This document shows positions 7,681 to 18,357 of a DNA stretch of 64,000 bases, in pieces. The position numbers and the translations under genes were made by a program. The stretch spans positions 62,001 through 126,000 of the forward strand of contig NZ_JAGIZB010000003.1 in the NCBI RefSeq assembly GCF_017813395.1, given 5' to 3'. Within the stretch, counting starts at the first letter, position 1, and each line of letters opens with the position of its first letter. Origin of the DNA: Pararoseomonas baculiformis (GTDB lineage: Bacteria; Pseudomonadota; Alphaproteobacteria; Acetobacterales; Acetobacteraceae). Under the pieces are notes generated by a model. It was given only the letters and a program-made list of their open reading frames with translations. It searched no databases and was not told the origin of the DNA.

Positions 7681-9120
7681 CTAGCGCGGTCGGGGCAGCA
7701 GCGCCATCGGCTGCTCGCCCGCAGGCGTTTCAACCCGCAGCAGCCGGTAGCACTCCGCCTCCACCCCTGAGCGGGAGCGGATGATCTCTCCGATCGGCGC
7801 CGCGCCCGGCCAGAGGGAAGGTCCCTCGCCGCGCCGGAGGCTGCGCAGCATCACCCCGCCCTGCCCGTCGGGCGGCGCGGGAAGGTTGAACAGGTCCCAG
7901 CGATCTCCGATGGCCACCACTGGCACGCCCGGGGGCAAGTGCAGGGCCAGCTCGGCCGCCAGCCCATACTCCTCGGCCGCGATGAAGCTTGCGCCTGCCT
8001 GCAGCCGCGCCTCATTGACCTGCCGGGCCAGATCGGGCCAGCCACCGAGCCGCGCGAGCGTCGGGTCGGCCGATCGTGGCAGGGCCAGCGGCGCGAGGCC
8101 GGCCTGGAGGAGGACGACCGCGCTCAGTGCACCGCCCAGCCATGCCCCGATGCGCTGCCAGCGAAGCGCGGTGAAGGCGGCCGCCGCCAGGGATGCGCCG
8201 GGGTAGAGGATGGCGGGCCAGTTCCCCTGAACCCGGCTTCCGAGTGCCTGCCAGAGGAACAGCAGCGCCGCGGGGAAGACCAGCGTCGCGATCAAGCCCG
8301 CCCCGGCGTCGCGCCGCCGCACCCAGGCCATGGCCGCCGCCCAGCTTCCCACGGCGCAGAGGATGAGAAGGATCGGAGAGGCGAGGCCGAGCTGGCCGGC
8401 AAGCAGTTCCCCCAGATAGCGGAAGCCGAAATCCGCGCCCGCCCCGGCCCTCCCGCCCTGCTTGGCGAAGGAGGCCCAGCCATGCGCCGCGTTCCAGACA
8501 AGCACGGGCGAGAAGACCAGCACGGCGAGGAGCCCGCCCGCATAGAGCCGCCAGTCCCGCCACCAGCGTCGGGCAGAAGGTTCCGCCAGCAGCCAGAGCA
8601 CCAGCCCCGCGCCGAGCAGCACCGCCGTATATTTGGAGAGCAGCGCGCAGCCGGCGAACAGCCCAACCGTGAACCACCAGTTCCCGCGACCTGAGGCATG
8701 CAGCCGCGCGACGGCCCAGATCGTGCAGCACCAGAAGACGAAAAGCGGGGTATCCGGCGTCATCAGCACGGCGCCCGCATTGGTCACGGGCATGGCGTTC
8801 AGCAGCAGCGCTGCCCAGCGGCCCGGGCGATGCTCCGGCATCAGCCGGTCGCCCGCATCCGCCAGGGCCAGGGATGCGGCCGCCAGCCCGAGCGGGCCGA
8901 GCAAGCGTATCCCGGCCGGCCCATCCCCTCCGATGAAGGTTCCGGCCGCGATCCAGAGCGCGACCATGGGCGGATGGTCGAGATAGCCGGGCTGCAGGGT
9001 CCGGCCCCAGACCCAGTAATAGGCCTCGTCCGGGGAAAGCGGCAGGAGCACCGTCGCGCCGAGGCGCAGCAGCGTCAGCGCCAGCAATCCGGCCAGCCAG
9101 GGGTTCACCGGCTGCGCCAT
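7681..9120 (-). CDS. Glycosyltransferase family 39 (ArnT/PMT-like) membrane protein
   Basis: 479-residue polytopic membrane protein with about 11-12 hydrophobic helices and a periplasmic C-terminal domain. The first loop after helix 1 carries L-S-P-D-E-A-Y-Y-W (the catalytic Asp-Glu of GT-C enzymes), followed by G-Y-L-D-H-P-P-M. Enzymes of this kind transfer a sugar from a polyprenyl-phosphate donor on the outer face of the inner membrane. ATG at 9120 overlaps the 3' end of the GT2-GtrA gene by 16 bases. The pair fits donor synthesis followed by transfer, as in ArnC/ArnT. The acceptor (lipid A, protein or hopanoid) cannot be told. Confidence 0.9.
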   Translation of the reverse strand: MAQPVNPWLAGLLALTLLRLGATVLLPLSPDEAYYWVWGRTLQPGYLDHPPMVALWIAAGTFIGGDGPAGIRLLGPLGLAAASLALADAGDRLMPEHRPGRWAALLLNAMPVTNAGAVLMTPDTPLFVFWCCTIWAVARLHASGRGNWWFTVGLFAGCALLSKYTAVLLGAGLVLWLLAEPSARRWWRDWRLYAGGLLAVLVFSPVLVWNAAHGWASFAKQGGRAGAGADFGFRYLGELLAGQLGLASPILLILCAVGSWAAAMAWVRRRDAGAGLIATLVFPAALLFLWQALGSRVQGNWPAILYPGASLAAAAFTALRWQRIGAWLGGALSAVVLLQAGLAPLALPRSADPTLARLGGWPDLARQVNEARLQAGASFIAAEEYGLAAELALHLPPGVPVVAIGDRWDLFNLPAPPDGQGGVMLRSLRRGEGPSLWPGAAPIGEIIRSRSGVEAECYRLLRVETPAGEQPMALLPRPR

Positions 9121-10220
9121 ACGAGGGTGGACGAGATGGCGTAGTTCCAGACCACCGTCAGCAGTGCCCCGGCCGCCCCGGCCAGCCCCCATCCCGCCAA
9201 CTCTTCCCGCAGCAGCATCCCCGCCACGCCCACATTGGCGGCCGCGCCGATGCCACAGCCCAGGTAGAAGATGACGAGGCCACGGACCAGCCCTGCCCCG
9301 CGCAGCCGCATGTCGCGGTAGGTGATCCGGTTGTTCAGCAGGAAGTTCACCGTCATCGCCACGAAGGTCGCGATCCACTGCGCGGTCTCGAACCGGATCC
9401 CCGGAACCTGCACCGCCAGGAACAGCGCGGCCATGTGCACCACCACGCCCACCGCCCCAACGGCGGCAAAGGAAACGAAGCGCCAGGGAAGCCACCCGCC
9501 CAGCGCCTTGTCCATCAGCAGCCCGAGGAATTCGAGCAGCACGGTGGCATCGAGCTTCGACTCGCCCGCCAGCCGCGGGCGGAACTGGTAGGGGATTTCG
9601 GCAACCCGCAATGGGCGCCCGGCGGAGAGCAACAGGTCCAGCAGGATCTTGAACCCGCGCCCCGAGAGCTTCGGTGCCAGTGCCTCGAACAGGGCGCGCG
9701 GCATCAGGAAGAAGCCGCTCATCGGGTCCCCGACCGGGGTGGGCAGCAGCAGCGCGGCCAGCCGCGTGCCCGCATCGCTCACCTTCGCCCGTGCGGCCGA
9801 GAAGCCGCCCTCGGCCTCGCCACCTTCCACATGGCGGCTTCCGATCGCCACCTCCGCTCCCTCGCGCACGGCGGCCAGCATCGCGGGCAGCGCCGTCTCG
9901 TCATGCTGAAGGTCGCCGTCGATCACGGCCACGTAGCGGGCGGATGAGGAGAGCACGCCCTCCGTCACCGCAGAGGCAAGGCCGCGCCGCCCGATGCGCC
10001 GCAGCCCGCGAACGCGCGGGTCCCGTGCCGCCAACTCGCGGACCTCTGCCGTGGTGCCGTCCGGGCTGTCGTCATCGACGAAGACCACCTCCCAGGCGAT
10101 CCCGCCCAGGGCCGCGTCCAGCCGCGCCACCATCGGAGCGACATTCGCCGCTTCCTTGTAGCAGGGTACTACCACGGTGAGTTCCGCGGGCAGATCGGCA
10201 ATGTGGGTCTCGGCCGGCAC
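9105..10220 (-). CDS. GT2 polyprenyl-phosphate glycosyltransferase fused to a GtrA-type membrane domain
   Basis: 371 residues. Residues ~12-235 are a DPM1/ArnC-like GT2 domain: V-V-P-C-Y-K-E-A-A-N-V at the N-terminus, V-V-F-V-D-D-D-S-P-D-G-T, and the metal-binding V-I-D-G-D-L-Q-H-D. Residues ~240-371 are a GtrA-like domain with four membrane helices and the N-F-L-L-N-N-R-I-T-Y-R motif. The protein should build a polyprenyl-phosphate sugar on the cytosolic face and may help flip it. It is translationally overlapped with the GT39 gene downstream, which would use that donor. Sugar identity is unknown. Confidence 0.92.
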   Translation of the reverse strand: MPAETHIADLPAELTVVVPCYKEAANVAPMVARLDAALGGIAWEVVFVDDDSPDGTTAEVRELAARDPRVRGLRRIGRRGLASAVTEGVLSSSARYVAVIDGDLQHDETALPAMLAAVREGAEVAIGSRHVEGGEAEGGFSAARAKVSDAGTRLAALLLPTPVGDPMSGFFLMPRALFEALAPKLSGRGFKILLDLLLSAGRPLRVAEIPYQFRPRLAGESKLDATVLLEFLGLLMDKALGGWLPWRFVSFAAVGAVGVVVHMAALFLAVQVPGIRFETAQWIATFVAMTVNFLLNNRITYRDMRLRGAGLVRGLVIFYLGCGIGAAANVGVAGMLLREELAGWGLAGAAGALLTVVWNYAISSTLVWRSR

Positions 10221-11879: not shown

Positions 11880-13046
11880 ATGTTCGGCCGCGTGATCCGG
11901 GAGGCCCTGGCCGGCCTTCTCGCCGCCCGCCAGCGCGCCGTCCTCGCGCTGCTCGGCATCGTGGTCGGCGCCGGCGCCGTGATCGCCATGCTGAATGTCG
12001 GCGCCATCGCGCGGAATGAGACCGTGCGGCAGTTCCGGGAAATGGGCACGGATATCCTCATGCTCCGCACTGGAGGCTTCAGCGGCGCCTTCAACCCGGC
12101 CGACCTGGAGGCGCTGCCCGCCCTGGTACCGGCCATCGAGGATGTGGCGCCCTTTGCCATCGGTGGCGGCGTGGTAGGCCATGAGGGCATGACGCAGACC
12201 GTGTCCACCCTGGGCACGACAGGCAGCTTCGCCCGCGCGGCACGGCTGCCGCTGGCGCAGGGCCGCTTCCTCACGGAGCATGACCGCTACGAGCTGTTCG
12301 CGGTGCTCGGCGCGCGGTTGGCGGCCGATCTTTCCTCCCCCTTCGCACCGGTGCGCATCGGCAGCCAGCTCCGGATGGGCCGCTATGTCTTCACCGTGGT
12401 TGGCATCCTCGCCCCGGTCCTGCCCAGCCCGATGATGCCGGTGGATGTGGACGGCACCCTCTTCGTCTCCATCCCCAATGCGCGGCGCGTCATGCCGGAT
12501 TCGGGAATCAGCACGGTGATGGTGCGGCTCCGCCCCGATGCGGACCCGGAGGCGGCCACGATCCCCATCCGGCGGCATCTCGAGCCAAGGTTGCGCGATG
12601 GCGGGCTGAACGTGCAGAGCGCGCGGCAGCTGATCGCGGGCATGGCGGGCCAGATGCGCCTCTTCACCGTGCTGCTCGGCGCCATCGGGGCCATCGCGCT
12701 CCTGCTCGGCGGAGTCGGGGTGATGAACATTATGATCATCTCCATCGCCGAGCGTAGGCGGGAGATCGGGATACGCTTGGCGATCGGAGCGCGCCGGGCG
12801 GAGATCCGCAGCCTTTTCCTCGCCGAAGCCGTGATCCTCGCCCTTGCCGGCGGGCTGCTCGGCATCGCCGTCGGGATTGCCGGCGCCTATGGCTTCGCGC
12901 GGGTTTCAGGGTGGGAATTCATCCTCTCTCCGGCCGCGGCGCCCCTCGGGGCCGGAGTCTCGGCGGCAGTGGGGATCTTCTTCGGCTTCTACCCCGCCGT
13001 GATGGCCTCCCGCCTGGATCCGATCGAGGCGCTGCGCTCGGAATAG
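11880..13046 (+). CDS. MacB/FtsX-family ABC transporter permease
   Basis: 388 residues with the MacB topology: one N-terminal membrane helix (~20-40), a large periplasmic domain (~45-255), then three C-terminal helices (~262-290, 315-345, 352-378). The V-G-V-M-N-I-M-I-I-S-I-A-E-R-R-R-E-I-G motif followed by I-G-A-R between helices 2 and 3 is diagnostic for MacB-like permeases. The C-terminus ends M-A-S-R-L-D-P-I-E-A-L-R, also typical. ATG follows immediately after the ATPase stop. It should pass a substrate from the periplasm toward the adaptor and TolC-like channel encoded just downstream. Confidence 0.94.
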   Translation: MFGRVIREALAGLLAARQRAVLALLGIVVGAGAVIAMLNVGAIARNETVRQFREMGTDILMLRTGGFSGAFNPADLEALPALVPAIEDVAPFAIGGGVVGHEGMTQTVSTLGTTGSFARAARLPLAQGRFLTEHDRYELFAVLGARLAADLSSPFAPVRIGSQLRMGRYVFTVVGILAPVLPSPMMPVDVDGTLFVSIPNARRVMPDSGISTVMVRLRPDADPEAATIPIRRHLEPRLRDGGLNVQSARQLIAGMAGQMRLFTVLLGAIGAIALLLGGVGVMNIMIISIAERRREIGIRLAIGARRAEIRSLFLAEAVILALAGGLLGIAVGIAGAYGFARVSGWEFILSPAAAPLGAGVSAAVGIFFGFYPAVMASRLDPIEALRSE

Positions 13047-13061: not shown

Positions 13062-13292
13062 CTACGGCACAAGCTCCGGCATCGAGCCGCCATGCGGCGC
13101 GCGGTTTGGCCGGTTCGGCAGGGAGATGGGCGGCGCGCCGGTCGGCTCTGCGAGCCGAAGCACGGGCACGGCGCCGCCAGCGACAGGGGCCGCCATCTCC
13201 GGCCGGGCCACGGGCTGGCTGAGCACCGCCGGCGGGGCGCATCCGCCCAGGAGCAGCAATGCCGCCAGAAACACCTTGGGGCTTGCCCGCAT
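13062..13292 (-). CDS. Small Pro-rich predicted lipoprotein
   Basis: 76 residues on the strand opposite the surrounding export genes. The ATG at 13292 is preceded by a consensus AGGAGG Shine-Dalgarno with about six bases of spacing, which argues for real translation. The leader M-R-A-S-P-K-V-F-L-A-A-L-L-L-L-G-G-C carries a good lipobox (L-G-G-C, Cys18). The mature part is short, rich in Pro and Ala, and without a recognised domain; the tail reads N-R-P-N-R-A-P-H-G-G-S. It converges with the MacB-like permease gene (15-base gap) and diverges from the tolC-like gene. Function unknown. Confidence 0.72.
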   Translation of the reverse strand: MRASPKVFLAALLLLGGCAPPAVLSQPVARPEMAAPVAGGAVPVLRLAEPTGAPPISLPNRPNRAPHGGSMPELVP

Positions 13293-13412: not shown

Positions 13413-14957
13413 ATGAGCCCTCCGGAACAGACGAAGGGGCCTGCCCGCGCGGAACCGCTCGGCGGAGGGCCGGCGGCATGGCGCCATCTTGCCGCACCCA
13501 TGCTGGCATTCGCGCTGCTCGCCCTCCCCGCCGCCGGGCCGGCTTCAGCGCAGTCCCACGGGCGCGCTCCGGCCCAGCTGCCCGGCCAGGAGGCACCGGC
13601 CGGCGCCGCCGCCCTCAGCCTTCCGGAAGCCGTGTATCTGGGGTTGCGGAACAACCGGGTGATCCGTTCCGAATATCTCCAGCGCGTGGCGGACCGCTTT
13701 GCTCTGCGCGTAGAGGAGAGCCGCTTCACGCCGCGCCTCGACATCGCCGCGACCACGAACCGGTCCCGCTCCGCCGGGGTGAACACGACCGCAGCCAGGC
13801 TCGGCCCCGTGCTGAGCTGGGACGCACCCACAGGGGCTCGCCTCAACTTCGGCTGGCAGGCGGCGCAGACGAATATCCGCGGCCAGCCCGGCAACGGCGC
13901 GGGCAACCTCTCCTTCGAGTTGGTCCAGCCACTGCTTGCAGGCGCAGGGATCGACTACGCCACGGCTCCGCTCCGCATTGCCCGCATCAGCGAGCAGAAT
14001 GCGCGGCTGCGCGTGAAGCAGACCGTCTCCGAGCAGGTCACCTCCATCGTCCTGGCCTATCGCACGCTGCTGCAAAGCCAGGAGCAGCTGCGCATCGCGG
14101 AGGACGGGCTGCGGCGCGCACGCGAACTCGTGGAGGTGAACCGCCTGCTGATCGCCGCGGGCCGCCTCGCCCAGGTCGAGATTGTTCAGTCCGAGGCGAG
14201 CGTCGCCCAGCAGGAACTGGCACTTCTCGCCGCGCAGAACGCGAATGAGGAGGCCAGGCTGGCGCTCCTGGTCCTCATCGCCGCCGACCCGGCTTCCCGT
14301 ATCTGGGCCGCGGACCGTCCCTCCGCACCGTCGGTGCGCGTGGACCTCCAGCGGGCGCTTGCCACGGCCTATGCCAACCAGCCCGCCTATCTCGGCCAGC
14401 TCTTCAACATCGAGATCAACCGCATCAACCTCGATGCGGCGCGAAACCAGCGGCTCTGGGAACTGAACATCGTCGCCGGGGCGGGGCAGCAGGCCACGCG
14501 GCGGAACGTGCTGGATACGGTGGACGCGCTGCGGCAGGTGCGGTCGGACTTCAACATCGGCCTGCAGCTGAACATCCCCATCGGCTATCTCGCGCGCGAG
14601 CAGCTGGAGGTGAACGCGACCACCGCGCTGCGCCAGTCCGAGCTTGCGGCCGAGCAGGCGCGCGACGCGCTGCGTAAGAGCGTGGAGGACGGCGTACGGA
14701 ACGTGGAAACCCAGCGCCGCCAGGCCGAGTTGGCGCGGCGCGCACGGGAACTCGCCCGGCAGCAGCTGGAGGTCGAGCTTGCCCGGCTGCAGGCCGGCCG
14801 CTCCAGTAATTTCCAGGTGGTCTCCTTCCAATCAGCGCTCCAGCAGGCCGAAAGCGCGGAACTGGGCGCGGTGATTGCGTATCTGAACGCCCTGAACCAG
14901 CTGGACCTCGTTCTCGGCACCGTGCTCGAAACCTGGCAGATCACGCTGAACGAGTGA
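13413..14957 (+). CDS. TolC family outer membrane efflux protein
   Basis: 514 residues with an N-terminal hydrophobic leader ending around A-S-A-Q (residue ~47), longer than usual because of a charged pre-segment. The mature protein shows two OEP repeats rich in Ala, Arg, Gln and Leu heptads with alternating beta segments (for example L-N-F-G-W-Q-A-A-Q and F-N-I-G-L-Q-L-N-I-P), as in TolC-type alpha-barrel/beta-barrel channels. The helical parts (~195-285 and ~405-495) are long amphipathic coils. The stop overlaps the start of the PAS-adaptor gene (TGATG), so channel and adaptor are translationally coupled. No lipid-anchoring Cys is seen. Confidence 0.9.
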   Translation: MSPPEQTKGPARAEPLGGGPAAWRHLAAPMLAFALLALPAAGPASAQSHGRAPAQLPGQEAPAGAAALSLPEAVYLGLRNNRVIRSEYLQRVADRFALRVEESRFTPRLDIAATTNRSRSAGVNTTAARLGPVLSWDAPTGARLNFGWQAAQTNIRGQPGNGAGNLSFELVQPLLAGAGIDYATAPLRIARISEQNARLRVKQTVSEQVTSIVLAYRTLLQSQEQLRIAEDGLRRARELVEVNRLLIAAGRLAQVEIVQSEASVAQQELALLAAQNANEEARLALLVLIAADPASRIWAADRPSAPSVRVDLQRALATAYANQPAYLGQLFNIEINRINLDAARNQRLWELNIVAGAGQQATRRNVLDTVDALRQVRSDFNIGLQLNIPIGYLAREQLEVNATTALRQSELAAEQARDALRKSVEDGVRNVETQRRQAELARRARELARQQLEVELARLQAGRSSNFQVVSFQSALQQAESAELGAVIAYLNALNQLDLVLGTVLETWQITLNE

Positions 14958-16789
14958 TGTTCCCCACCCTCCCCGCCACTGCGCAGCCGCCCGAGGGAGC
15001 ATCGGAGCCGCATGGGGCCGATGCCGCGCTCGATCGCCTGGCGCAGGACTACCGCAGCGCGCTCGACAGCATGGCGGATGGCGTGCTCACCGTCGGGCCA
15101 GATGGCCGCATCTCCACCCTGAACCGCGCGGGCGCCGACATCCTGGCCTGCGATCCGGAGACGGCGATTGGCGGCACGCTGCAATCCCTCCTTCCCGAGG
15201 ATGGCAGTGCGGATGCGTTCTTCGACGCGGTGCTGGAGCCTGTCGGGCAGGAAGGCGCGGTCGCTCGGCACCGGGTCGAAGCCCGTCTCGGTGACCGGGA
15301 CCGCCATCTTGAGGTCACCAGCCGGGCCTACCGCATCCGTATCGGTCCGCAAGCTGGCCGCCTCGCTCTCACCGCCGTCTTTTCGGACGTCACCGAGCTC
15401 GCGCGGCTCTCGGAGGCCGAGGCCGCGCTGAACCGTGAGCTGCGCGAGCAGCACGCGAAGCTCCAGGCGGCCTATCTGCAGCTGGAGCAGTCGGCCGAGC
15501 GGCTCCGCACCACGGGCCGTCGCCTGGCCGCGATCCGCTGGGCGGCAACGATCGGCGTCTTCGCCCTTTTCGTCGGCGCCGGGCTCTATGCCTGGGAGCC
15601 CGGACCCGGCTTCGGCAGGGCAGTTACCGCAGAGGCGCTGCCCTCTTTCGGCACGCTGCCGGTCACCACCCAGCCGGTCTCGCTCCGGATCGCTGTGGTG
15701 GGGGTGCTGGATGCGGGCTCCCTCGTCTCGGTGGTGGCGCCCTTCGACGGTCTCGTCCGGGAGCGGAACTTTCGCTACGGCAACCAGGTGGAGCGCGGTA
15801 CCTCCCTGATCCGGCTCGACGTCAACGACGTCGAGGTTCGCCTGCGGGAGGCCCGCTCGGCACTCATCCGTGCGCGGCAGAAGGTTGAGGAGCTGCGCGG
15901 ATGGACCACGGGGCAGGAGGTGTCCCGCGCCCGCCGCCAGCTCTCCGCCGCCGAGATGGAGGCGAACGACATCCGCGCGCGCCTTGCCCAGACGAAAATC
16001 CTGCTGGACCGCGGCATCGTGCCCGCCGAGGAATACCGCACCCTCCAGCAGCAGCAGCGAAACCAGCAACTGCAGCTGCAGGCCGCCCGGGCCGATCTGG
16101 AAGCCACCCTGGCCCGCGGGGACTCGGAGCATCTCCGCATCGCGGAGTTCGAGATGGCGAATGCGGAGGTGAAGGTGCGCGAGCTGGAATCCGATCTCGG
16201 CAGCGCCGTTGTCTCCGCTCCCGTGACCGGCGTGGTGCTGATGCCGCCCGATCCGGGCGGCGGCCGCCGTGCCGAGACGATGGAGCCGGGCAGCCGCGTC
16301 ACGCGTGGCCAGGCCATGTTCACCATCGGCGATCTCGAAAGCTTCCAGGTGCGCGCTTCGGTGGATGAGATCGACGTGGGCAAGGTCCGCGTCGGCCAGC
16401 CCGTCTCCGTAACCGGCGACGCCTTCCCGGGCATCGAGCTTACGGGCCGCGTCACCAGCGTCGCGGCGCAGGCGAGCGGCGAGACCTCCGCACGGACAGG
16501 CATGCCTGTCTTCGGGGTCACGGTCGCGATCGAGAACATCCCGCCGGAGGAGCGGCGCCGCCTTTCGGTCGGCATGTCGGCGAACCTCTCCATCATCGCC
16601 TATGACAATCCTGAAGCGATCGTCCTGCCCCCGGACGCCATCCGCACCGAGGGCGAGCAACGAGTGGTCCAGCTGCGGGATGCGCTCGGCGCGGTGCGAC
16701 GCGTGCCGGTGAGGCTGGGCATCAGCACGCCGGGGGGCATCGAGATCCGGGAAGGCTTGTCGCCCGGCGACACGGTGGTGCTGTGGTGA
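14957..16789 (+). CDS. PAS-domain/HlyD (MacA-like) periplasmic adaptor fusion
   Basis: 610 residues. Residues ~31-148 form a PAS domain: D-S-M-A-D-G-V-L-T-V-G-P-D-G-R-I-S-T-L-N-R-A opens it and V-F-S-D-V-T-E closes it. Residues ~149-190 are a charged coiled coil, and ~194-213 one membrane helix. Residues ~245-600 are a full membrane-fusion protein: lipoyl half-motif V-A-P-F-D-G-L-V-R-E, alpha-hairpin ~290-412, second half-motif V-S-A-P-V-T-G-V-V-L, then beta-barrel and membrane-proximal domains. Adaptors of MacA/HlyD pumps normally have only a signal or short cytosolic tail. Here a complete sensor lies in the cytoplasm. The gene overlaps the tolC-like stop by one base; ATG 14957 is preferred to GTG 14954. 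No His-kinase or GGDEF output exists, so the adaptor itself is the likely output. Confidence 0.93.
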   Translation: MFPTLPATAQPPEGASEPHGADAALDRLAQDYRSALDSMADGVLTVGPDGRISTLNRAGADILACDPETAIGGTLQSLLPEDGSADAFFDAVLEPVGQEGAVARHRVEARLGDRDRHLEVTSRAYRIRIGPQAGRLALTAVFSDVTELARLSEAEAALNRELREQHAKLQAAYLQLEQSAERLRTTGRRLAAIRWAATIGVFALFVGAGLYAWEPGPGFGRAVTAEALPSFGTLPVTTQPVSLRIAVVGVLDAGSLVSVVAPFDGLVRERNFRYGNQVERGTSLIRLDVNDVEVRLREARSALIRARQKVEELRGWTTGQEVSRARRQLSAAEMEANDIRARLAQTKILLDRGIVPAEEYRTLQQQQRNQQLQLQAARADLEATLARGDSEHLRIAEFEMANAEVKVRELESDLGSAVVSAPVTGVVLMPPDPGGGRRAETMEPGSRVTRGQAMFTIGDLESFQVRASVDEIDVGKVRVGQPVSVTGDAFPGIELTGRVTSVAAQASGETSARTGMPVFGVTVAIENIPPEERRRLSVGMSANLSIIAYDNPEAIVLPPDAIRTEGEQRVVQLRDALGAVRRVPVRLGISTPGGIEIREGLSPGDTVVLW

Positions 16790-16805: not shown

Positions 16806-17774
16806 ATGAACCTGGCTGGGCTGAGCTTCCGCGACCTCGAATACCTCGTCGCGGTCGCGGACCACCTGCATTTCGGCAAGGCCGCCACGGCCTGCGCGGT
16901 CAGTCAGCCGACTCTGTCCGCGCAGATCCGCAAGCTGGAGGACTATCTCGGCGTCCAGGCGTTCGAGCGCGCGAGTCGCAGCGTGATGGTGACGGAACGC
17001 GGCGCGGAGATCGTGGCGCAATGCCGCACCATCCTGGCCGAGGGCCGGCGCCTGCTGGAGATGGCGCAGTCCCGCGGCGAGCCGCTGGGCGGGCAGTTCC
17101 GGCTCGGAGTCATTTCCACCCTGGCGCCCTATCTCGCCCCGATCATCCTGAACCCGCTGCGCAGCCGCTTCCCCAACCTACGCCTCCACCTCGTGGAAGG
17201 GCTCACGCATGGCCTCGTCCGCACGCTAGAGGCCGGCGAGATCGATGCGCTGCTCGCCTCGTCACCCATCCGCGACATCGAGCTTTCCGAGCTGCCGATC
17301 TTCCATGAGAGCTTCGTCCTCGCGGTTCCGCGGGACCACAGGCTCGCGGTGATCGACCGCGTGACAATGGAGGATGTGCCCGCGGCGGAGCTGATCCTGC
17401 TAAGCGAGGGCCATTGCCTGCGTGACCAGACACTCGCCCTCTTCCCCGCCTGCCAGCGAGCCGCGCAGAGCGGCACGGGGGTGCAGGCCACCAGCCTGGA
17501 AACACTGCGCCAGATGATCGGTGCCGGGATGGGCTGCTCCCTCCTGCCCCAGCTTGCGGTGCAGGTCGGCACGCTCCTGGACGACATGGTGGCCTACCGC
17601 CTCGTTCGGGCGACCCCCCTGCCCGGCCGCGACATCTCCCTGTTCCATCGGCCGAGCTTCGGGCGAATCCGGGAGGTGCGCCTGCTTCGCGACGTGGTGC
17701 GGGACGCGATCGCGGGGCTGGGCACGGTGAAGGTGCATGGCAGGCCGGAAACCCGCGCTCTCGTGGCTGCCTGA
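16806..17774 (+). CDS. oxyR: OxyR-type LysR family peroxide-responsive regulator
   Basis: 322 residues. N-terminal winged helix-turn-helix (residues ~6-65, F-G-K-A-A-T-A-C-A-V-S-Q-P-T-L-S) and LysR substrate-binding domain (~95-300). The OxyR redox loop E-G-H-C-L-R-D-Q places the peroxidatic Cys at 204. A second Cys is at 216, twelve positions on rather than nine as in E. coli (C199/C208). OxyR activates peroxide-defence genes when the disulfide forms. The gene begins 16 bases after the PAS-adaptor stop on the same strand, so it may share that transcript. Only a weak ribosome site is seen. Confidence 0.9.
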   Translation: MNLAGLSFRDLEYLVAVADHLHFGKAATACAVSQPTLSAQIRKLEDYLGVQAFERASRSVMVTERGAEIVAQCRTILAEGRRLLEMAQSRGEPLGGQFRLGVISTLAPYLAPIILNPLRSRFPNLRLHLVEGLTHGLVRTLEAGEIDALLASSPIRDIELSELPIFHESFVLAVPRDHRLAVIDRVTMEDVPAAELILLSEGHCLRDQTLALFPACQRAAQSGTGVQATSLETLRQMIGAGMGCSLLPQLAVQVGTLLDDMVAYRLVRATPLPGRDISLFHRPSFGRIREVRLLRDVVRDAIAGLGTVKVHGRPETRALVAA

Positions 17775-17946: not shown

Positions 17947-18357
17947 ATGAGCCGCTTTACGAAGCCCCTGGCCGCCTTCGCGACCGCAGGTGCCATCCTG
18001 GCCCTTGCCGCCCCGGCCAGCGCGCAGCAATCCCGCTACTGCGACGGCAACCTGACCGCCAACTCCTTCTACTCCAACGTCCTGTCCGATGGCACGACGG
18101 CGCGTGTGGAGTATCACGGACAGTTCCAGAACGTGGACCGGCAGCGCCGCGTCATCACCGCCACGATGATCCAGCTGCGTCAGGTCGGCCAGTTCACGGT
18201 GATCTCGCAGATCCAGCGCTTCGAACTGAAGCCCTTTGAGCAGAAGGACATCACCCTGCTCTCCGTGCGGACCAACAACCCCGGCGGCTCTGGTGCTCCC
18301 AGCCCGTCCCAGGTGGGCCAGCAGATCCGCTTCACCTGCGCATACCGCGCGCAGTAG
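17947..18357 (+). CDS. Secreted protein of unknown function
   Basis: 136 residues with a clear signal peptide (R-F-T-K-P-L-A, hydrophobic Ala/Leu run, cleavage after A-S-A). The mature protein of about 110 residues has two Cys, near its ends (Y-C-D-G-N at residue 32 and F-T-C-A-Y at 131), that could form a disulfide closing the domain. The middle is predicted beta-rich (R-V-E-Y-H-G-Q-F, I-T-A-T-M-I-Q-L, F-T-V-I-S-Q-I-Q-R-F). I recognise no family. It follows oxyR with a 172-base gap containing a possible OxyR site, so it may be a periplasmic stress protein; that is inference. Confidence 0.75.
   Translation: MSRFTKPLAAFATAGAILALAAPASAQQSRYCDGNLTANSFYSNVLSDGTTARVEYHGQFQNVDRQRRVITATMIQLRQVGQFTVISQIQRFELKPFEQKDITLLSVRTNNPGGSGAPSPSQVGQQIRFTCAYRAQ

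What the first reader, a model, noticed from the sequence alone, without database searches (positions are those of the whole stretch)
14957..16789. A cytoplasmic PAS sensor fused to a MacA/HlyD-type periplasmic adaptor
One uninterrupted frame encodes PAS (residues ~31-148), coiled coil (~149-190), a single membrane helix (~194-213) and a complete membrane-fusion protein (~245-600). Adaptors of tripartite pumps are not normally sensors, and PAS proteins normally end in a kinase, cyclase or DNA-binding output. Here the only possible output is the adaptor. A ligand or redox change in the cytosol could be passed through the coil and helix to the pump. The gene is co-translated with the TolC-like channel.
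Basis: partly seen in the sequence, partly recalled or inferred. Interest (0 to 1): 0.85.

Follow-up and report, generated by a model that had tools for sequence, protein, structure and literature searches.

The report
Pump adaptor with built-in cytoplasmic sensor
A bacterial export pump has a connector protein that carries, on the inside of the cell, a sensor domain joined to it by a helix whose length is kept in strict register in related bacteria, which suggests that export is switched directly by a signal from inside the cell.

Summary
Window 14957-16789 is one intact frame (610 aa): PAS (Pfam PAS_4, 36-149), coiled coil (~144-189), one membrane helix (~190-213), HlyD/MacA-like adaptor. 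It overlaps the TolC gene, beside a MacB-type ATPase and permease. It is no assembly error: 25 PAS-adaptors passing Pfam cut-offs occur in 24 genomes of six family codes, each directly after a TolC gene. Seven relatives carry GAF-PAS; the window copy has no GAF. Sister adaptors without any sensor exist, so the sensor is an add-on.

The strongest sign of signalling is the linker. From the PAS D-V-T motif to the arginine before the membrane it is 45 residues (18 of 26 rows) or exactly seven fewer (8 of 26), and the next 24 residues are constant (26 of 26), while PAS core and periplasmic linker vary. That is the signature of a register-locked coil. Ligand, direction of signalling and cargo are unknown; cargo may be small Sec-exported proteins, as for other MacB-family pumps. 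PAS domains fused to MFS transporters are mentioned in print; my searches found no paper on a sensor fused to a tripartite-pump adaptor. I rate it a new variant of a known kind.

The parts
14957..16789 (+). PAS-coil-TM-HlyD adaptor, 610 aa (GTG 14954 is an alternative start)
15062..15403 (+). PAS domain, residues 36-149; nearest solved relatives by profile are histidine-kinase PAS domains (WalK, E 7e-10)
15386..15523 (+). register-locked coiled coil, D144 to R189 (45 residues; 38 in 8 of 26 rows)
15524..15595 (+). single membrane helix region, residues 190-213
15680..16786 (+). periplasmic adaptor part, residues ~242-610
13413..14957 (+). TolC-like outer membrane channel, 514 aa; stop overlaps the adaptor's start
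11880..13046 (+). MacB-type permease (MacB_PCD + FtsX), 388 aa
11163..11879 (+). separate MacB/LolD-type ATPase, 238 aa, Walker A, signature, Walker B and H-loop motifs present
13062..13292 (-). small putative lipoprotein (76 aa, lipobox LGGCAPP) on the opposite strand between permease and TolC; look-alikes in G210, G281, G332 and Azospirillum B510
   Evidence: resemblance judged by eye
17947..18357 (+). small protein with an N-terminal Sec-type signal (by eye); possible cargo, inference only
16806..17774 (+). LysR-type regulator; also next to the locus in G018, G400, G109 and beside the decayed locus of G008

Best explanation
It is the adaptor of a MacB-type tripartite exporter with a cytoplasmic PAS sensor built in. 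Shown by sequence: the PAS, its C-terminal D-V-T-E motif, a heptad coil of fixed register, a membrane helix at a fixed distance, and the adaptor, encoded after TolC and beside MacB-type ATPase and permease genes. Inferred: a cytosolic cue alters the PAS (paired along the coil, three pairs if the adaptor is a hexamer as MacA is), the coil turns or shifts, and this is passed through the membrane helix to the adaptor ring and/or to the MacB ATPase dimer beside it, setting the rate or assembly of the pump. Relatives swap or trim the input (GAF-PAS, trimmed GAF-PAS, PAS, in one distant case another GAF) while keeping coil and output. Cargo is possibly a small Sec-exported protein taken up from the periplasm, as in other MacB-family pumps.
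For: Domain hits. PAS above Pfam cut-off in 25 of 26 rows, HlyD in 26 of 26; 24 genomes, six family codes; TolC directly upstream in 25 of 26 rows, none in view for G238. Linker D144-R189 is 45 residues in 18 of 26 rows and 38 in 8 of 26; the TM stretch is 24 in 26 of 26; the periplasmic linker takes 10 lengths (the D-to-R distances confirmed without alignment) and the PAS from N56 to D144 seven lengths in 24 rows. Heptad a/d positions are hydrophobic (permutation p 0.00035; register chosen by eye first, about 0.0025 after correction for seven registers). L151 is invariant in 24 of 24 rows, L169 and A172 in 26 of 26 and Q165 in 25 of 26, all at a/d. dN/dS of the PAS is below 1 in 18 of 18 pairs, 0.04-0.75 (pairs share branches and are not independent). 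G930 joins a different GAF to a coil, TM and adaptor. 0 of 23 other adaptors of relatives match PAS or GAF. Seven-residue dependence of signalling on linker length is reported for the LOV kinase YF1 (PMC6798134, passages).
Against: No ligand or cofactor known and no conserved His/Cys in the PAS. Sensorless sister adaptors exist (G033 and others). The seven-residue deletion may be one event: holding its eight carriers together is not rejected (p-AU 0.098), so the lengths may rest on a single change. A coil packed in a fixed way without signalling would also keep its register. AlphaFold models were poor (pLDDT 52.6 and 58.8, two-row alignments), so there is no structural test. None of 14 congeners has the gene intact; G008 has a remnant. 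G238 has a stop just before residue 51 of the PAS, so one copy may be broken or wrongly assembled.
Confidence: 0.55

Rival explanations
1. The PAS and coil are a constitutive assembly device: they pair adaptor subunits in the cytosol so that the ring forms around the ATPase, without sensing anything.
For: No recognisable ligand site; PAS domains and coils often dimerise (established knowledge); register locking would also follow from a fixed coil packing; the GAF has been trimmed or lost while coil and PAS stayed.
Against: Sister adaptors without it exist; input domains differ between lineages (GAF-PAS, PAS, other GAF), as in sensors; the D-V-T-E motif and PAS N56 are kept.
Confidence: 0.25
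2. Signal runs outward-in: engagement of TolC, cargo or the envelope moves the adaptor, and the PAS reports this to a cytoplasmic partner such as the MacB ATPase or an unlinked kinase or regulator.
For: Closest PAS relatives by profile are kinase PAS domains; a LysR gene neighbours the window copy; MacB works by long-range coupling across the membrane (PMC8277102, passages).
Against: The LysR was seen in five of 26 regions, the window's included. Kinase or cyclase neighbours were not searched for systematically; none is among the six window genes named.
Confidence: 0.12
3. The PAS is a passenger, kept by descent without a function in the pump.
For: G033 and G192 lack it; the GAF region evolves fast in some lineages (dN/dS up to 1.26).
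Against: PAS dN/dS below 1 in 18 of 18 pairs; linker register kept across six family codes.
Confidence: 0.06
4. Sequencing or assembly error joining two genes.
For: None found.
Against: Same fusion in 23 other genomes at 33-63% identity; uniform codon-position G+C.
Confidence: 0.01

Closest known systems
MacA of MacAB-TolC
   Same: Adaptor with an N-terminal membrane anchor, works with a MacB-type ABC protein and TolC; C-terminal part similar (PDB 4dk0, putative MacA, E 5.7e-9).
   Different: MacA lacks a cytoplasmic domain (PMC13328181, section 8); here ~190 cytoplasmic residues with PAS and coil; MacA equivalog score 33.3 of 342 needed; ATPase and permease are separate genes.
Cex/Aat exporters of enteric E. 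coli
   Same: Separate ATPase and permease, adaptor (named there for Cex) and TolC-like channel; Cex accepts Sec-exported cargo from the periplasm, Aat exports the 10-kDa dispersin (PMC8277102, section 43).
   Different: No sensor is mentioned in that section; a CexD/AatD-like gene was not sought here; cargo of the window pump unknown.
HlyD of type I secretion
   Same: Adaptor with a cytoplasmic N-terminus before one membrane helix.
   Different: HlyD's cytoplasmic part is small and binds the substrate's signal (PMC13328181, section 8); type I HlyD score 42.2 of 208.65.
MFS transporters fused to PAS, CBS, CNBD or UspA domains
   Same: 'Plug and play' cytoplasmic sensor domain joined to a transport protein (PMC10710835, passage).
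   Different: There the sensor sits on the transporter itself; here on the periplasmic adaptor, across the membrane, through a register-locked coil.
PAS/LOV histidine kinases with heptad linkers (YF1) and the signalling helix (S-helix)
   Same: PAS-type sensor and a register-dependent coil that relays signal (PMC6798134, PMC1592074, passages).
   Different: Output there is usually an enzyme; here an adaptor across the membrane. The S-helix 'ERT' signature is absent from the 26 coil rows.
CusB metal-sensing adaptor
   Same: An adaptor that senses (PMC13328181, passages).
   Different: CusB itself binds metal ions (periplasmic, established knowledge); here the sensor is a separate cytoplasmic domain.

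Membership tests
PAS domain (Pfam PF08448 PAS_4) | score above curated cut-off | tested here: met
   42.6 against 23.1 bits, residues 36-149
RND_mfp adaptor subfamily (TIGR01730) | score above curated cut-off | tested here: met
   109.7 against 94.9 bits; partner genes are however ABC (MacB type), not RND
MacA (NF008606) | score above equivalog cut-off | tested here: not met
   33.3 against 342 bits
MacA (NF008606) | no cytoplasmic domain | tested here: not met
   about 190 residues with PAS and coil before the membrane helix; the defining statement is from PMC13328181
Type I secretion HlyD (TIGR01843) | score above subfamily cut-off | tested here: not met
   42.2 against 208.65 bits
MacB/FtsX-type tripartite exporter | ATPase plus permease with MacB_PCD and FtsX domains beside adaptor and TolC-like channel | tested here: met
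   PF00005, PF12704, PF02687 and PF02321 above cut-off in the window; home-made gene clusters of TolC, adaptor, permease and ATPase hold 20, 20, 19 and 17 of 26 regions
MacB/FtsX-type tripartite exporter | four membrane helices in the permease | tested here: inconclusive
   simple hydropathy gives five peaks, one weak
MacB/FtsX-type tripartite exporter | physical assembly and export from the periplasm | not testable with these tools
   needs experiment
Register-locked signalling coil (PAS/LOV kinases) | linker lengths differ by multiples of seven | tested here: met
   45 (18 of 26) or 38 (8 of 26)
S-helix | ERT signature in the central heptad | tested here: not met
   no ERT in 26 coil rows; definition from PMC1592074
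Cex/Aat exporter | small Sec-exported cargo encoded nearby | tested here: inconclusive
   small signal-peptide ORFs more frequent near the locus, 14 of 87 against 2 of 95, 11 of 19 loci; rule written after examples had been seen
Haem or LOV-flavin PAS | conserved His or Cys ligand | tested here: not met
   no His or Cys kept in six or more of 24 rows; which residues such PAS domains use is recalled

The most novel reading that the evidence does not exclude
A class of cytosol-gated tripartite exporters: interchangeable cytoplasmic sensors (GAF-PAS, PAS, an unrelated GAF) plugged through a register-locked coil into the adaptor, so that a cytosolic cue directly sets the release of small Sec-exported proteins across the outer membrane, without kinase or transcription.
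Probability: 0.45. Interest if true: 0.85.

Novelty: new variant of a known kind. Interest (0 to 1): 0.66.

Why it matters
A 2026 review says that MacA and MdtA adaptors appear to lack direct structural tuning and adapt mainly through transcription (PMC13328181, passages). A sensor covalently wired into the adaptor would be post-translational control of an envelope-spanning machine, and the conserved linker gives an immediate test (add one to seven residues). It would also show that the adaptor's membrane helix carries signals and is not only an anchor.

Tried and rejected
Assembly error: rejected by independent copies. Strict MacA or type I HlyD membership: rejected by cut-offs. Haem or LOV-type PAS: no conserved ligand residue. 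Structure prediction: two jobs with two-row alignments (window + L032) gave pLDDT 52.6 and 58.8; both show a long helix running from the coil into the membrane stretch but are too weak, so no fold search was run. More GAF-adaptors in the order of G930: of 48 genomes searched only G930 itself at E <= 1e-30. Plasmid collection: P0001 matches 533 records and P0002 338, no place over 80% of the query. Promoter/terminator scan: 0 and 1 sites against 0.4 and 2.3 expected. Pfam on nine candidate cargo proteins and the lipoprotein: nothing above cut-off (the window reference there began one residue before the Met). Clade tests: PAS-bearing adaptors as one clade rejected (p-AU 0.003), seven-residue-deletion carriers as one clade not rejected (p-AU 0.098); groups were named after the tree was seen and long branches (G930, G1019) are in it.

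Rows dropped or weak: G396 and G238 (PAS incomplete in the row used) were left out of the PAS columns. A first count of PAS lengths (8 values) was spoilt by a start chosen too late in G109; the count from N56 (7 values, 24 rows) replaces it. The 24-column GAF value of G000/G018 in the dN/dS table is not used. Two of 25 control adaptors (L020, L029) gave no BLAST match and were left out of the 23; two of the 23 (L007, L009) are cut by the end of the locus on the N-terminal side. An earlier count of 26 intact PAS-adaptors in 25 genomes was mended to 25 in 24 after G238 failed the PAS scan.
Full report
OBSERVATION. The frame at 14957-16789 is intact and codes 610 residues. Pfam finds PAS_4 at 36-149 and the HlyD_3 and HlyD_D23 families in the C-terminal part, above curated cut-offs; NCBIfam's RND_mfp subfamily is passed, MacA and type I HlyD are not. 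The membrane helix lies at about 190-213, with more positive charge on the N-terminal side (4 K/R against 1). The start overlaps the TolC stop. Upstream lie a MacB/LolD-type ATPase with its motifs and a MacB-type permease. The window lies in contig C33 of a 5.25 Mb genome. G403, in the same family code, holds the same protein as L032, a record titled Acetobacteraceae MAG.

HOW WIDESPREAD. A profile of four homologues (A2) found 21 of 397 genomes of the window's family code at E <= 1e-60 (two candidates scored per genome). Eighteen have a PAS above cut-off (G396 in two contig pieces); G238 has a stop before residue 51 near the start of its contig and no PAS match; G033 starts at the membrane helix; G192 has a GAF-like stretch with no Pfam match. 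In 385 genomes drawn from the class, five genomes with other family codes carry PAS-adaptors (G576, G772, G682, G460, G681, again two candidates per genome, so a lower bound; Pfam). An order search of 36 genomes added G1136 with two copies. In 398 genomes drawn from the phylum (partly the same genomes), eight adaptors without a sensor-sized N-terminus were listed (judged by reading, not by Pfam) and one, G930, with another GAF; its order gave no second case in 48 genomes. In all, 25 PAS-adaptors in 24 genomes of six family codes, all 25 directly after TolC. In 34 rows with TolC in view, PAS-bearing or not, the adaptor start as chosen by my script overlaps the TolC stop in 29. As a control, 23 adaptors of other subfamilies from relatives match HlyD families and none matches PAS or GAF.

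ARCHITECTURE AND HISTORY. GAF above cut-off plus PAS: G018, G023, G403, G392, G414, G210 and the split G396. A shortened region in the place of the GAF, with no GAF match (G407, G400) or one under cut-off (G332, G352), plus PAS. PAS without GAF: G000, G380, G281, G336, G109, G290, G371 and the seven rows outside the family. The tree of the adaptor part alone (42 rows) needs at least 3 changes for PAS presence and 4 for GAF presence among 20 rows of the family. The PAS rows as one clade are rejected (p-AU 0.003), so PAS was lost or gained more than once, if the long branches do not mislead. None of 14 congeners has the gene intact; G008 keeps a remnant, residues 1-64 of the ATPase near residues 487-610 of the adaptor, beside a LysR 88% identical to the window's.

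THE COIL. From D144 of the PAS D-V-T-E motif to R189 the distance is 45 residues in 18 of 26 rows and 38 in 8 of 26; R189-W213 is 24 in 26 of 26; the periplasmic linker that follows takes 10 lengths. G238 is among the 26 (its coil is complete); without it the count is 17 and 8 of 25. From N56 to D144 the PAS takes seven lengths in 24 rows. A count without alignment gives D to A-Y/F 28 or 21 and D to R 45 or 38. Heptad a/d positions are hydrophobic (p 0.00035 by permutation of 30 columns; register set by eye first). L169 and A172 are the same in 26 of 26 rows, Q165 in 25. The deletion of seven maps to two places on the tree, but a single event is not excluded. In the LOV kinase YF1 a seven-residue dependence of signalling on linker length is reported (PMC6798134, passages).

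SELECTION. By a simple counting method PAS dN/dS is below 1 in 18 of 18 pairs (0.04-0.75), adaptor 0.09-0.63, coil 0-0.69, TM up to 1.43. The GAF region gives 0.83-1.26 in pairs of G018, G407, G400; 0.39 and 0.64 in G332/G352 and G392/G332; and 0.16 and 0.56 in two pairs with full GAFs (G414/G210, G403/G414). Pairs share branches and synonymous sites are partly saturated, so the values are rough. The PAS is kept; the GAF appears to be shed in some lineages.

WHAT THE PUMP MOVES. MacB-family pumps take cargo from the periplasm, including small Sec-exported proteins (PMC8277102, section 43 and passages). Small ORFs with a Sec-type signal lie within 2 kb of the locus more often than farther away in the same regions: 14 of 87 against 2 of 95 (Fisher p 0.001), in 11 of 19 loci, three of them (G033, G192, G930) without a PAS. 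The genes were called by a script of mine and the rule was written after examples had been read; at least one hit is a lipoprotein; the window's own candidate (17947-18357) is missed by the rule. This is a lead only. Pfam has no family for the nine looked at.

MECHANISM. Most likely a cytosolic cue read by the PAS is relayed by coil and membrane helix to the adaptor ring or the ATPase dimer. Everything from cue to effect is inference; the parts and their fixed spacing are shown. The nearest PAS relatives by profile are kinase PAS domains (WalK, E 7e-10). Ligand unknown.

LITERATURE. Searches of the open-access library for PAS or GAF with HlyD, periplasmic adaptor, membrane fusion protein, MacA or TolC listed no paper whose title or abstract start describes such a fusion; of the listed papers only PMC10710835 was opened (passages). 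It says that MFS transporters are found fused to PAS and other domains, a 'plug and play' idea; sensor-transporter fusion as such is therefore not new, and for that I lowered interest from 0.68 to 0.66. I recall, without a test here, that GAF-HlyD architectures may exist in other phyla; these were not searched. One review states that MacA lacks a cytoplasmic domain (PMC13328181, section 8); another that ABC-linked adaptors typically have sizeable cytoplasmic domains of little-known structure (PMC8277102, passage).

VERDICT. Real, conserved, and a new variant of a known kind.

Noticed in passing
window 13062-13292 (-): A 76-aa putative lipoprotein lies on the opposite strand between permease and TolC, so TolC-adaptor may be a separate transcript; look-alike small lipoproteins occur in G210, G281, G332 and Azospirillum B510.
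   Followed up: partly
L037 (G008) 9101-9708: Congener keeps only the start of the ATPase and the end of the adaptor beside the same LysR: a decayed, internally deleted copy of the locus.
   Followed up: yes
L131 (G930) 8011-9921: A different GAF domain fused through a coil to a distant adaptor of the same type beside TolC.
   Followed up: partly
L140 2536-3513, L127 6180-7722, L128 1-2948, L046 2514-4948: Duplicated small secreted or hypothetical proteins beside the pump genes, different in each lineage; possible cargo families.
   Followed up: partly
L055, L058, L056, L057: GAF region shortened and fast-evolving in front of a conserved PAS and coil.
   Followed up: partly
L066 (G238) 1-200: Stop codon just before residue 51 of the PAS near the contig start: broken copy or assembly edge.
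   Followed up: partly
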